From contig NZ_BLPF01000005.1 of the NCBI RefSeq assembly GCF_011764425.1, positions 1 through 64,000 on the forward strand: DNA of 64,000 nucleotides, given 5' to 3'. The notes beneath the pieces are model-generated. The model did no database searches and was not told the DNA's origin. It worked only from the letters and a program-made list of their open reading frames with translations. Source of the DNA: Phytohabitans houttuyneae (GTDB lineage: Bacteria > Actinomycetota > Actinomycetes > Mycobacteriales > Micromonosporaceae). Both the position numbers and the translations under genes were made by a program. Positions 20,939-23,979 of the stretch are shown in pieces. The first letter of the stretch is position 1; the number at the start of each line of letters is the position of its first letter.

Positions 20939-21361
20939 ATGTCCTTCGAGGAGAAGCGCTCCTGGATCTACGCGGCCATCGCCGTCGTCGTGCCGGTGGC
21001 GTACGCCGTCGTGATGCTAGGCCGGATCGACGGCACGGATGTCGCCGACGTGTCGTACATCCGGCCGCTGATCACCGCGATCGTCGCCGCGATGGTGCTC
21101 AACATCGCGGCAAACATGGTCGCCGGCATGTTCTCCCGCAAGGAGGAGGTGGACCGCAAGGACGAGCGGGACCGGCAGATCCACCGGATCGGCGAGTTCG
21201 TCGGTTTTCACGTGATGAGCCTCGCGGCGCTGGTGCCGCTGGTGCTGGCCATGACCGAGGTCGACTACTTCTGGATCGCCAACGCGCTCTACCTCGCGTT
21301 CTGCCTGGCCGCGCTCGGCTCGGCGGTGGCGAAGATCGTGGCCTACCGGCGGGGATTCTGA
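20939..21361 (+). CDS. Small integral membrane protein paired with an XRE regulator
   Basis: Unrecognised 140-residue protein with about four hydrophobic spans (near residues 10-30, 45-68, 85-105 and 110-132). A charged loop KEEVDRKDERDRQIHRIGEF lies between spans 2 and 3. I choose ATG 20939 (MSFEEKRSW) because the promoter -10 lies just upstream; an earlier in-frame start at 20909 would fall inside the promoter. The XRE gene begins two bases after its stop, and such membrane protein/XRE pairs are widespread in Gram-positive bacteria. Function unknown. Confidence 0.72.
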   Translation: MSFEEKRSWIYAAIAVVVPVAYAVVMLGRIDGTDVADVSYIRPLITAIVAAMVLNIAANMVAGMFSRKEEVDRKDERDRQIHRIGEFVGFHVMSLAALVPLVLAMTEVDYFWIANALYLAFCLAALGSAVAKIVAYRRGF

Positions 21362-21362
21362 C

Positions 21363-21590
21363 ATGGTCAAGCCGACCCGGGTCACCAACTCGATCCGCAC
21401 GCTGCGCTTCAACCACGGCGAGATGACCCAGGCGGAGCTCGCCGACCGCATCGGCGTCACCCGCCAGACGATCATCGCGATCGAGCAGGGGCGCTACTCG
21501 CCGTCGCTGGAGATGGCCTTCCGCATCGCGCGCGTCTTCAAGGTCCCGCTCGACGACGTGTTCCAGTACCCCGACGACGACCCCGCCTGA
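21363..21590 (+). CDS. XRE-family helix-turn-helix regulator (short)
   Basis: A 75-residue stand-alone Cro/C1-type HTH. The motif is MTQAELADRIGVTRQTIIAI followed by EQGRYSPSLEMAFRIARVFK and an acidic tail DVFQYPDDDPA. It is the short YgzD-like form that usually regulates its own operon with the upstream membrane protein. ATG 21363 lies two bases after the preceding stop. The inverted repeat across the -35 at 20893-20908 is a plausible target (inference). Confidence 0.85.
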   Translation: MVKPTRVTNSIRTLRFNHGEMTQAELADRIGVTRQTIIAIEQGRYSPSLEMAFRIARVFKVPLDDVFQYPDDDPA

Positions 21591-21591
21591 C

Positions 21592-21985
21592 TCACGGCGT
21601 CCAGTCGGCCTGGCTCGCCATCGAGCGCAGCGCGACCCGGTGCGGCGTGAGGCGCATCGCGGCGTTGCGCAGGGCGATCGCGAGCGGGTTGCGCAGCTGC
21701 TGGCCGAAGCGCCCGGTGCGCAGCGCCGCCCGCGCCACTCCCTGAGCGCGGGGCCGGCGCCTCCGGTCGTACTCGCCGAGCGCCGCGGCCACGTCGCCCC
21801 CGGCGCGCATGCCGCGGCGAGCACCACCGCGTCCTCGATCGCCTGGTTGGCGCCCTGCCCGAGGTGGGGCGTCATCGCGTGCGCGGCGTCGCCGAGCAGC
21901 GCGACCGCGCCGAGGTGGTACGCCGGTGGCGGGGTGCCGAGGTGGTAGATGTCGGTGCGGATCACGGCCGCCGGGTCGGTGGGGT
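21592..21985 (-). pseudogene. Remnant of an FAD-dependent monooxygenase (C-terminal third, frameshifted)
   Basis: The minus strand encodes the end of a flavoprotein hydroxylase: VIRTDIYHLGTPPPAYHLG, then ALLGDAAHAMTPHLGQGANQ, the conserved GDAAHxxxPxxGQG motif. It continues after a frame change at the CCCCC run 21797-21801 into GGDVAAALGEYDRRRRPRAQ and the C-terminus. The N-terminal two-thirds, including the Rossmann GxGxxG segment, is absent. Homology begins abruptly at about 21985, immediately beyond the stop codon of the sigma-glycosidase fusion gene on the same strand. This is a real truncation, whatever the cause of the internal frameshift. Confidence 0.8.
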
Positions 21986-21987
21986 GA

Positions 21988-23865
21988 TCAGCGGGCGGCG
22001 ACGAACGCGCGGCCGACGGCCGTTGGCGTGGTGCCGGTGCGGAAGAGGCCGGACTGGTCCTTGTCGGTCGCGGGCAGGCCGAACCAGGCGTACCTGTGCA
22101 GGAACGAGAGGCCGCCCAGCATCTTGGCTGCTGCCGTCACAAACGCGGCCTGCTGGGCCTGGCCCGGAAAGCGCGCGCTGCCGCCGGAAAAGTCGATGAG
22201 CGCAAACTCGGTCAGCCAGATCGGCTTCTTGTACCGCTCGTAGACGGCCTGCAGGTACCGGCGGAGCTGGTCGACCGCGTTGGCCGTGGTGAAGTCCCCG
22301 CCGTACCAGTGCAGGGCCACGAAGTCGACCCGGTAGCCGCGCGACTTGGCGCCGGACATGAAGCGGTCAAGCCAGCCGCCCTGGTCGGCGCCGCCGAACG
22401 CGACCGCCGGGCTGCTCAGCTTGCTGCCGGTGGCCTGGAGCCGTGGCCACAGGTCGAGCGCCTGCTCCACGCTCATGTTGGCCTGGCCCTCCATGTCGGG
22501 CTCGTTGAAGGCGAGCAGGTAGGGACCGGCGGCCTTCGCGGCCGCGAGCGCGGAGTCGTTGACGTCCTTGGTGCCCCAGATCATCGGTACGAACTGGGCG
22601 CCCTTCGGGGTCGTCACGCCGTCGTGGCGCGGGTTCCACGTGTAGTACCAGCTGGCCTTGGAGCTGGCGAGGGCCTGGCTGACGCCGTTGAAGGTCCACA
22701 CCGCGACGCCCTTCTTGGGCGACGTGGCGGCCGGTGGCGCGGCGGGCGCCTTGGTGGTGGCGCGAGCCTTGGGGGTCGGCGTGGGGCTCGCCGGCGGCTT
22801 GGTCGTCGGCAGCGGGGCGGGCGTCGCCGACGGGCTGTCCGCGACCGCGACCGGCAGCGGGTTGGCGGCCGGCTCGGTGTCGGGGGAGCGGCTGAGCTTG
22901 ACGCCGACGAGGGTCGCGGTCACCAGCACCACGACCGTCGCCGCGGCGGTGATCGGCACGGCGAGGCTGCTGCCGCCGGCGACCGCCGCGGCCTTCGCGG
23001 CGCCGGCCACCTTCGCCGCGCCCGCCGCCTTCGCGGACGCAGCGGCTAACGCGGTGGGCGCGGCGGAACCGCCGAACTTGCCGGCGAGCGCGGCCGGCAC
23101 CGGCAGCATCGAGATGCCGGCGAGCAGGCGGTCGATGGGCACGAGGTCACCGGAGGTACGCGCGCAGACGCCGCAGTCGCGCACGTGCCGGGCCAGCCGC
23201 TTGCGCCAGAGCGAGTCCGGCTTGCCGTTCCAGGAAGAGGCAACCGCGCGGAGGGCGGCGCACCCCGGCTGCGCGCGGAGAGCGCGCACGACGGTGCGGG
23301 CGGTCTGGATCTGCTCCTTCATGCGGTGGATTCGCACACCGGCGTGGTTGGGCGAAAGGCCGAGCGCGCCGGCGAGGTCGGAGCGCTCCAGCTCGCCCGC
23401 CTCCTCCAGCCACCAGAGCGCGATCAGCTCCTGGTCGTCGGCGTCCAGCCAGCGGGTCGCCTCGGCCACCTCGCGGCGCTGGTCGGTGAGGCCGAGGCGG
23501 GCGATCGTGAGGTCGGCGAAGTCGGGGCCGGGGTCGGGCACCTCCTGCATCGCCTCGACCGCCACGGGGCGGGCGGGCGTGGTGCGCCGGTGCAGCTCCC
23601 AGTCGCGCACCTGCCGGATCGTGATCGCCACCAGCCAGGGGCGGTAGGCGCTCGGGTCACGCAGGTCGGGCAGGTGGCGCACCACCCGTACCAGCGTCTC
23701 CTGCACCACGTCGTCGACGTCCGCGTGACCGCGCAGCGCGCGCCCGACGATGTTGTAGACCAGCGGGAGCGAGCCGGCCACCAGCGCGTCGAGCGCGTGC
23801 GCGCCGCCCTGCTGCGCCGCGCTGACCAGCGCGGCGTCCGGTGTGGCCCGACCGGTTCGGGACAT
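21988..23865 (-). CDS. ECF sigma factor fused through a membrane span to a GH128-like glycosidase domain
   Basis: A 625-residue chimera. About residues 20-95 are sigma region 2 (HADVDDVVQETLVRVVRHLP) and 130-195 region 4 (LDADDQELIALWWLEEAG, LAGALGLSPNHAGVRIHRMK). Residues 195-250 include a zinc-binding-like HVRDCGVC (H-x3-C-x2-C) as in ZAS anti-sigma domains. One transmembrane span lies near 300-325 and a Pro/Thr/Ala-rich linker to about 385. The C-terminal domain resembles the Asl1/GH128 glycosyl-hydrolase core, with LLAFNEPDMEGQ and IWLTEFALIDF supplying the two expected glutamates and FVALHWYGG between them. The topology places sigma in the cytoplasm and the glycosidase outside. ECF groups with C-terminal extracellular domains are known in actinobacteria. 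No separate anti-sigma gene is adjacent. Confidence 0.85.
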   Translation of the reverse strand: MSRTGRATPDAALVSAAQQGGAHALDALVAGSLPLVYNIVGRALRGHADVDDVVQETLVRVVRHLPDLRDPSAYRPWLVAITIRQVRDWELHRRTTPARPVAVEAMQEVPDPGPDFADLTIARLGLTDQRREVAEATRWLDADDQELIALWWLEEAGELERSDLAGALGLSPNHAGVRIHRMKEQIQTARTVVRALRAQPGCAALRAVASSWNGKPDSLWRKRLARHVRDCGVCARTSGDLVPIDRLLAGISMLPVPAALAGKFGGSAAPTALAAASAKAAGAAKVAGAAKAAAVAGGSSLAVPITAAATVVVLVTATLVGVKLSRSPDTEPAANPLPVAVADSPSATPAPLPTTKPPASPTPTPKARATTKAPAAPPAATSPKKGVAVWTFNGVSQALASSKASWYYTWNPRHDGVTTPKGAQFVPMIWGTKDVNDSALAAAKAAGPYLLAFNEPDMEGQANMSVEQALDLWPRLQATGSKLSSPAVAFGGADQGGWLDRFMSGAKSRGYRVDFVALHWYGGDFTTANAVDQLRRYLQAVYERYKKPIWLTEFALIDFSGGSARFPGQAQQAAFVTAAAKMLGGLSFLHRYAWFGLPATDKDQSGLFRTGTTPTAVGRAFVAAR

Positions 23866-23979
23866 CCGCCTGCCTCCCCTTTCCGCGGCACGCTCCGCGT
23901 GCCGGTGCCGACCCTTCCGTATGTGGAGACCGGCAGGCCAGCCACCGGATTACAGAAAGTCCCCAAGAAGACCGGGAAC

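What the first reader, a model, noticed from the sequence alone, without database searches (positions are those of the whole stretch)
21988..23865. ECF sigma factor fused to an extracellular GH128-like glycosidase in one membrane protein
Seen: sigma regions 2 and 4, an H-x3-C-x2-C segment, one transmembrane span, a Pro/Thr linker, and a glycosidase core with two candidate catalytic glutamates (NEPD and WLTEF). Known: actinobacterial ECF groups with long C-terminal extensions exist, some with carbohydrate-active domains. Inference: sensing or cutting of a cell-wall or environmental beta-glucan outside could release or alter the tethered sigma factor inside, a one-protein signalling route with the anti-sigma function built in. 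No separate anti-sigma gene lies beside it.
Basis: partly seen in the sequence, partly recalled or inferred. Interest (0 to 1): 0.75.

Follow-up and report, generated by a model that had tools for sequence, protein, structure and literature searches.

The report
Glucan-sensor sigma factor with built-in brake
A soil bacterium carries a single membrane protein that joins a gene switch inside the cell to a sugar-polymer-cutting enzyme outside it, and in its relatives the same promoter sequence sits in front of genes for enzymes that cut that same polymer, so its likely job (sensing fungal or plant beta-glucan) can now be tested directly.

Summary
Observation confirmed. The 625-aa ORF at 21988-23865 (-) is an ECF sigma factor with an invariant Cys/His zinc-type anti-sigma segment, one membrane span, a Pro/Thr/Ala linker and a GH128 subgroup I (endo-beta-1,3-glucanase) domain with both catalytic glutamates intact. 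It is not an assembly artefact: 46 of 76 aligned relatives carry the fusion. The architecture belongs to a described class (ECF52/ECF53 type), so it is a new member of a known kind.

What I add is a promoter-like sequence, TGT(T/A)(A/G)TCC-N15/16-GTCTCC, upstream of most of these genes and exactly once in the 11.3 Mb home genome: at the gene itself. In relatives it also precedes sigma-less GH128, GH16, thaumatin-like and F5/8C+DUF1996 genes (in a second family 12 of 16 strict sites; 3 more are sigma-family genes). In the home family strict sites occur in 24 of 44 genomes with the fusion and 2 of 106 others. Best reading: a positively autoregulated beta-1,3-glucan sensor switching on glucan-degrading exoenzymes. 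Ligand, proteolytic release and promoter use are untested. CAP-headed paralogues share the promoter, and the home genome shows no second exact site.

The parts
21988..23865 (-). sigma-ZAS-TM-linker-GH128 fusion gene, 625 aa
23599..23778 (-). sigma region 2 (res 30-89)
   Evidence: PF04542 1.2e-10
23311..23445 (-). sigma region 4 helix-turn-helix (res 141-185)
   Evidence: sub-threshold HTH profiles; sigma70-ECF model spans res 23-188
23164..23262 (-). built-in zinc anti-sigma (ZAS-type) signature C202-x24-H227-x3-C231-x2-C234
   Evidence: 76 of 76 rows keep all four residues; zf-HC2 in 6 of 55 members at E up to 1, best 3.3e-5; best PDB profile hits are anti-sigma DdvA (E 0.49) and 3hug chain B (E 1.0), weak; no fold match
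22891..22986 (-). single hydrophobic membrane span (res 294-325)
   Evidence: Kyte-Doolittle, only segment at or above 1.6
22726..22890 (-). Pro/Thr/Ala-rich, presumably extracellular linker (res 326-380)
   Evidence: composition; residues 263-351 and most of 355-370 have pLDDT under 50 in the model
21991..22725 (-). GH128 subgroup I beta-1,3-glucanase domain (res 381-625)
22501..22503 (-). catalytic E455 (= E102 of AmGH128_I)
   Evidence: aligned to the residue mutated in 6uat; Glu in 46 of 46 GH128 rows
22207..22209 (-). catalytic E553 (= E199 of AmGH128_I)
   Evidence: aligned to the residue mutated in 6uas and 6ufl; Glu in 46 of 46 GH128 rows
23925..23954 (-). predicted ECF-type promoter of the gene itself, TGTAATCC-N16-GTCTCC
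23873..23882 (-). ribosome-binding-site-like sequence
   Evidence: by reading

Best explanation
A one-protein transmembrane switch for beta-1,3-glucan. At rest the cytoplasmic sigma domain is held inactive by the zinc-type anti-sigma segment fused to it and tethered to the membrane. Outside, the GH128 subgroup I domain binds, and probably still cuts, beta-1,3-glucan (fungal wall, callose or similar). Engagement leads, most likely by stepwise proteolysis through the membrane span, to release or unmasking of the sigma domain, which directs RNA polymerase to TGT(T/A)(A/G)TCC-N15/16-GTCTCC promoters. One target is its own gene (positive feedback). In relatives the others are mainly exported or anchored proteins of beta-1,3-glucanase families (sigma-less GH128, GH16, thaumatin-like) and F5/8C+DUF1996 proteins of unknown activity. 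Shown by sequence: domains, invariant zinc-type residues, intact active site, motif conservation, co-occurrence, identity of downstream genes. Inferred: inhibition by the fused segment, glucan as signal, proteolytic release, actual promoter use.
For: Domains and active site. Zinc-type residues 76 of 76. Motif upstream of 39 of 46 GH128-type genes under a relaxed rule (shuffled mean 0.06) and 16 of 46 under the strict rule (0.0) (the relaxed rule was tuned on these sequences). One exact site in the home genome, at the gene itself; reversed control 0. 54 sites in 41 relatives' genomes, reversed control 2; of the 32 not at the sigma-GH128 gene, 16 precede genes for proteins that look exported or anchored: 5 GH128, 2 GH16, 2 thaumatin, 4 F5/8C+DUF1996, 1 CBM2, 1 alginate-lyase-like, 1 with a sub-threshold PATR repeat. 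In 150 genomes of the family of G010, 16 strict TGTTATCC sites (control 1): 8 F5/8C+GH128, 4 F5/8C+DUF1996, 3 sigma-family genes, 1 unexplained; 12 of the 16 were new (L301 by BLAST only). In 150 genomes of the home family, after checking each GH128 ORF for the sigma part, strict TGTWATCC sites occur in 24 of 44 genomes with the fusion and 2 of 106 others, one of the two being a sigma gene cut by a contig end; without sites directly before GH128 it is 10 of 44 and 2 of 106; TGTWGTCC sites show no link, 8 of 44 and 20 of 106.
Against: In the home genome no exact second site exists; of 15 one-mismatch sites (reversed controls 4; for the 16-nt spacer alone 3 sites and 3 controls) all lie inside some open frame of 200 codons or more, and only one, before a CBM2 + Pel9A-like gene, looks promoter-like, and that is not a beta-1,3-glucanase. 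CAP-headed paralogues carry the same motif (11 of 15, relaxed), so the promoter does not track the GH128 head. Sites also precede AfsR-type regulators (4 genomes) or a 172-183-aa membrane-type protein (5 genomes), and 9 of the 32 look like chance (6 without a convincing gene, 3 rnpA-like). The reversed-pattern control is imperfect: a loose pattern gave 31 hits and 4 controls in the home genome. Same-genus G144 lost the motif; G098 and G132 have TGTAATGC. In same-genus G098 the sigma and GH128 parts lie in different frames. p-values ignore relatedness, and some genomes tested also supplied the motif. Foldseek found no anti-sigma fold for the zinc segment alone.
Confidence: 0.62

Rival explanations
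1. The GH128 part is the main product, a membrane-anchored surface glucanase, and the sigma part serves mainly to control the amount of this one protein (a self-amplifying single-gene circuit) rather than to report glucan to a regulon.
For: Only one exact promoter site in the home genome, at the gene itself; it is the only PF11790 domain found there; catalytic residues conserved in 46 of 46.
Against: In relatives the same promoter sequence precedes separate exoenzyme genes, so a wider regulon is likely at least there.
Confidence: 0.2
2. GH128 is only an anchor or spacer, and the switch is driven by something else (envelope stress, redox or zinc state of the Cys/His segment, phosphorylation).
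For: Heads differ widely on one chassis: 46 GH128, 15 CAP, 6 AbfB, 1 beta-helix, 8 without a Pfam head, of 76; the four zinc-type residues are kept across all of them.
Against: An idle head would not be expected to keep both catalytic glutamates in 46 of 46 rows, nor its promoter to precede genes of the same hydrolase family.
Confidence: 0.12
3. Assembly or annotation artefact joining two genes.
For: In one same-genus genome (G098) the two halves lie in different frames.
Against: The continuous fusion is in 46 of 76 aligned relatives, in 44 of the 70 home-family genomes that hold the GH128 domain, and unbroken in same-genus G144 and G132.
Confidence: 0.01

Closest known systems
ECF52 sigma factors (SCO4117 of Streptomyces coelicolor)
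   Same: Sigma + zinc finger + membrane span + Pro-rich stretch + extracellular carbohydrate domain in one protein; autoregulation and proteolytic release proposed (passages of PMC5826349 and PMC8999054).
   Different: SCO4117 carries a carbohydrate-binding module (smart00776), not a hydrolase. One sigma-type ORF at an NPCBM site in a Streptomyces genome (L285, taken here as an ECF52 example) gave no BLASTP match to this protein at E up to 1. The proposed SCO4117 motif CSGYN-17-SRHA differs.
ECF53 sigma factors
   Same: Reviews describe ECF52/ECF53 as fused to a membrane anti-sigma part, some with predicted glycosyl-hydrolase catalytic domains, without experimental validation (passages of PMC8999054, PMC10766802).
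   Different: Primary classification papers are not held and the ECF53 example WP_030276194.1 was not fetched, so membership is likely but untested.
SigI/RsgI of Clostridium thermocellum
   Same: Membrane anti-sigma factors with interchangeable outer heads (CBM3, CBM42, GH10 and others) that sense polysaccharides and control cellulosome genes, activated by stepwise proteolysis (passages of PMC12203970).
   Different: There sigma and anti-sigma are separate proteins. Here sigma, a zinc-type anti-sigma segment and a GH128 head are one chain.
AmGH128_I endo-beta-1,3-glucanase (PDB 6uaq)
   Same: Same fold and catalytic residues, about 60% identity.
   Different: Solved as a 263-residue chain without a sigma part.

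Membership tests
ECF sigma factor | sigma regions 2 and 4 recognised by ECF models | tested here: met
   PF04542 and NCBIfam sigma70-ECF over their cut-offs, res 23-188; region 4 by sub-threshold HTH profiles only
Zinc anti-sigma domain (class I ASD) | Hx3Cx2C zinc signature (the rule used in PMC7406223, passages) | tested here: met
   C-x24-H-x3-C-x2-C in 76 of 76
Zinc anti-sigma domain (class I ASD) | fold or profile similarity to known anti-sigma domains | tested here: inconclusive
   zf-HC2 in 6 of 55 (best 3.3e-5); two best PDB profile hits are an anti-sigma factor and 3hug_B but at E 0.49 and 1.0; no fold match
GH128 subgroup I | profile, fold and both catalytic glutamates | tested here: met
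GH128 subgroup I | endo-beta-1,3-glucanase activity | not testable with these tools
   needs an enzyme assay
ECF52 | NPCBM-type carbohydrate-binding end and similarity to SCO4117 | tested here: not met
   no NPCBM in the Pfam scan; no match to one sigma-NPCBM-type ORF, L285, at E up to 1; SCO4117 itself was not fetched
ECF53 | membership of the published ECF53 sequence group | not testable with these tools
   papers not held; reference protein not fetched
SigI/RsgI system | separate RsgI anti-sigma with an autocleaving periplasmic domain | tested here: not met
   single chain; a 55-residue low-complexity linker lies between span and GH128

The most novel reading that the evidence does not exclude
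A family of one-protein polysaccharide sensors in actinomycetes in which one sigma/anti-sigma chassis carries swappable outer heads (GH128, CAP, AbfB, pectate-lyase-like helix and others). For the GH128 branch the receptor belongs to the same enzyme family as its own regulon: the promoter that makes the sensor also makes sigma-less copies of the same ectodomain, GH16, thaumatin-like proteins and F5/8C+DUF1996 proteins, a dedicated beta-1,3-glucan (fungal wall or callose) attack regulon. By this logic DUF1996 would be a beta-glucan-active or fungal-wall domain. In the window's genome the circuit may have shrunk to a single gene that switches on itself.
Probability: 0.4. Interest if true: 0.72.

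Novelty: new member of a known kind. Interest (0 to 1): 0.52.

Why it matters
A 2024 review says that predicted glycosyl-hydrolase domains on ECF52/ECF53 sigma factors have no experimental validation (passage of PMC10766802). A concrete promoter, a short list of target gene types and a likely ligand make the question directly testable: does an outer hydrolase act as the sensor of a fused sigma factor? It would also offer a simple beta-glucan-responsive expression tool and a functional hint for bacterial DUF1996 proteins.

Tried and rejected
Assembly artefact: rejected by conservation. ECF52 assignment: not met (only L285 of the NPCBM loci was read in the right frame). Head type dictates promoter: not supported, since 11 of 15 CAP-headed genes share the motif while 0 of 6 AbfB-headed ones do; other heads 3 of 6, 0 of 2 and 0 of 1. 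Home-genome paralogues L002-L004 show no such site upstream. Loose pattern YGTNNTC in the home genome: 31 hits, 4 controls, GC-rich, not followed up; it shows that the reversed-pattern control can understate background. TGTWGTCC variants: 8 of 44 genomes with the fusion, 20 of 106 without, so background. All home-family sites together: 67, reversed control 10. rnpA-like upstream sites (L165, L167, L172; named from recall of the protein) are judged not to be promoters of this sigma factor. Zinc-segment fold search gave nothing useful. Paper searches for a GH128-sigma link, this promoter or its regulon listed no such report, but Huang 2015, Pinto 2019 and Casas-Pastor 2021 were not read and may hold a predicted ECF53 promoter.

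Mended on re-checking: an ORF-length rule (580 aa or more) had called 46 home-family genomes fused; testing each GH128 ORF for the sigma part leaves 44. G073 is sigma-less and in G098 the two parts are in different frames.

Rows dropped before counts: of 88 loci 75 plus P0001 were aligned. Dropped were L001 (same as P0001), L005-L008 (distant or short), L036, L037, L060, L064, L078 (cut by contig ends), and L051, L053, L058 (reading frame broken or masked). The 80 loci are the best of at least 441. For the zinc-segment model 55 of 74 distinct rows were given. The 22 self sites were assigned by eye. Some genomes are the same as (for example G009 and G102), and about ten genomes also supplied sequences from which the motif was read. 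Co-occurrence with the fusion was not tested in the family.

Full report
What is there. The minus-strand ORF 21988-23865 encodes 625 aa. From the N-terminus: sigma region 2 (PF04542, 1.2e-10), a region-4-type helix-turn-helix (sub-threshold Pfam, but the NCBIfam sigma70-ECF model spans res 23-188 over its cut-off), a Cys/His segment, one hydrophobic span at 294-325, a 55-residue linker rich in Pro, Ala and Thr, and PF11790 at 3.2e-50. The C-terminal domain is GH128 subgroup I: 1.4e-89 to 6uaq by sequence and TM-score 0.96 over the solved domain for the AlphaFold2 model. E455 and E553 are the positions altered in the deposited E102A and E199A mutants, and both are Glu in 46 of 46 GH128-bearing rows and in none of the other 30.

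The built-in brake. Across 76 aligned family members four residues, C202, H227, C231 and C234, are invariant, as are W212, W220, R221, K222, R226 and R229 around them. C-x24-H-x3-C-x2-C is the zinc anti-sigma type of signature (Hx3Cx2C is the rule used in PMC7406223, passages read). Profile support is modest: zf-HC2 matches 6 of 55 members at E up to 1 (best 3.3e-5), and the two top PDB profile hits are anti-sigma factor DdvA and 3hug chain B (the RslA anti-sigma partner, recalled), but only at E 0.49 and 1.0. A model of the segment alone found no fold match.

A chassis with changeable heads. Of 76 members (the best-matching loci, not a random sample), 46 end in GH128, 15 in CAP, 6 in AbfB, 1 in a Pel9A-like beta-helix, and 8 have no Pfam head. 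On a tree of the sigma part, GH128 needs two changes and CAP one (long branches noted there). The window's genome holds three further strong members, with an unassigned, an AbfB and a beta-helix head, and a single PF11790 domain, this one.

The promoter. Upstream of most of these genes lies TGT(T/A)(A/G)TCC-N15/16-GTCTCC, often after a short T-run, about 30-150 nt before the start codon chosen by script. A relaxed form is found at 39 of 46 GH128-type, 11 of 15 CAP-type, 0 of 6 AbfB-type and 3 of 9 other genes, against a shuffled mean of at most 0.06 per group; the strict TGTWATCC form at 16 of 46, 4 of 15, 0 of 6 and 1 of 9. The relaxed form was fitted to these sequences, so the tests below use exact patterns. 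In the window the site is 23954-23925 (-): TGTAATCC, 16 nt, GTCTCC. Two of three close same-genus genomes keep it nearly (TGTAATGC...GTCTCC); the third has different DNA there.

What else the promoter precedes. (i) Home genome, 11.3 Mb: exactly one exact site, the gene's own, and none for the reversed pattern. Allowing one mismatch gives 15 more sites against 4 controls. All 15 lie inside some open frame of 200 codons or more, which is common in such GC-rich DNA; one of them (L193) has a T-rich flank and sits 57 nt before an apparently exported CBM2 + Pel9A-like protein (the Pel9A match is just under its cut-off). (ii) 41 genomes holding relatives: 54 sites in 31 genomes, control 2. Of the 32 not at the sigma-GH128 gene, 5 precede GH128 without sigma, 2 GH16+ricin-B, 2 thaumatin, 4 F5/8C+DUF1996, 1 a CBM2 protein, 1 an alginate-lyase-like protein, 1 a protein with a sub-threshold PATR repeat, 2 sigma-family genes, 2 AfsR-type regulators, 1 a membrane-type protein, 1 a methyltransferase, 1 a metallophosphoesterase, 3 rnpA-like genes, and 6 nothing convincing. 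Export was judged by eye. In three Acrocarpospora genomes the F5/8C+DUF1996 gene is divergent from the sigma-GH128 gene and has its own site. (iii) A wider test in 150 genomes of the family of G010 with TGTTATCC only: 16 sites in 13 genomes, control 1. Eight precede F5/8C+GH128, 4 F5/8C+DUF1996, 3 sigma-family genes, 1 nothing clear; 4 of the 16 had been seen before. (iv) 150 genomes of the home family: 67 sites of the full pattern, control 10. GH128 was found in 70 genomes; the sigma part is in the same ORF in 44 of them. Strict TGTWATCC sites lie in 24 of 44 genomes with the fusion and in 2 of 106 others, one of which (L267) is itself a sigma gene cut by a contig end; the TGTWGTCC form is 8 of 44 versus 20 of 106. 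Leaving out sites directly before GH128, it is 10 of 44 versus 2 of 106. Fisher p-values are 1e-13 and 8e-5 but ignore relatedness, and some of these genomes also supplied the motif. The 33 strict sites there are 17 before GH128 (16 fused, 1 sigma-less), 2 GH16, 1 DUF1996, 1 CBM2, 2 sigma-family genes, 2 AfsR-type, 4 a membrane-type protein, and 4 without a convincing gene (one of them a duplicate at a contig end).

How it most likely works. GH128, GH16 and thaumatin-like proteins all include beta-1,3-glucan hydrolases (established knowledge; GH128 subgroup I also from the PDB titles). A receptor whose outer domain is a beta-1,3-glucanase and whose promoter sequence precedes beta-1,3-glucanase-family genes is best read as a beta-1,3-glucan sensor. 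The sigma domain is held by the fused zinc segment until an outside event, glucan engagement, leads to release. Proteolytic release is expected for ECF48, ECF52 and ECF53 (PMC8999054, passages) and is described for the separate RsgI anti-sigma factors with sugar-binding or GH10 heads (PMC12203970, passages); for this protein it is inference. Autoregulation is predicted from the gene's own site.

Limits. The promoter is not specific to GH128 heads, because CAP-headed Streptomyces and Streptacidiphilus members have it too, so paralogues may share regulons. In the window's own genome no second perfect target was found; the regulon there may be the gene itself or use degenerate sites. The reversed-pattern control can understate background (31 hits and 4 controls for a loose pattern in the home genome); the comparison of genomes with and without the fusion does not depend on it. 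No expression data were available.

Known or new. [quoted passage not shown] This protein is not ECF52 by the tests run here; ECF53 is likely but untested. The architecture is therefore a new member of a known kind. I found no report of the promoter or of the glucanase regulon in the held library, but the key classification papers could not be read.

Noticed in passing
window 21099-21965 (-): C-terminal piece of an FAD-binding monooxygenase-type protein (FAD_binding_3, profile 281-317 of 349) starting just after the fusion gene; most of the domain is missing and, by eye, the frame shifts: probably a pseudogene.
   Followed up: partly
window 23887-23903 (-): GGCACGC-GGA-GCGTGCC hairpin in the 5' leader, kept with loop changes in two of three same-genus genomes.
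   Followed up: no
L152, L155, L257, L258: In the promoters of GH16+ricin-B genes the spacer between the two boxes holds the palindrome GGTTCCGGAACC, possibly an extra operator.
   Followed up: no
L061, L071, L075, L076, L083: AbfB-headed Streptomyces members lack the TGTTATCC motif and share a different upstream block (CACACTGTCGCCCTCGACACATCGGCA-like), perhaps their own promoter.
   Followed up: no
L154, L260, L261, L263, L264: A 172-183-aa membrane-type protein (alike by eye; two of the five scanned, no Pfam hit) has a site within 45 nt upstream in five genomes, TGTTGTCC in L154 and TGTTATCC in the others.
   Followed up: no
L151, L156, L255, L256: AfsR/SARP-type (BTAD) regulators with a strict site 6-40 nt upstream in four genomes: a possible link from this sigma family to secondary metabolism.
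   Followed up: no
L004 (G000:C3:1171290) and L193 (G000:C3:1182334): A home-genome paralogue with a Pel9A-like head lies about 10 kb from a CBM2 + Pel9A-like gene that has a one-mismatch site: perhaps the same head-matches-target logic for pectin.
   Followed up: partly
L174, L176, L178, L180, L259, L295, L298, L299, L300: DUF1996, in 8 of these 9 with an F5/8C domain, recurs as a predicted target; its function is unknown and beta-glucan or fungal-wall activity is a guess.
   Followed up: partly
L227 (G098): In a same-genus genome the sigma and GH128 parts lie in different reading frames near the linker: a sequencing error or a broken copy.
   Followed up: no
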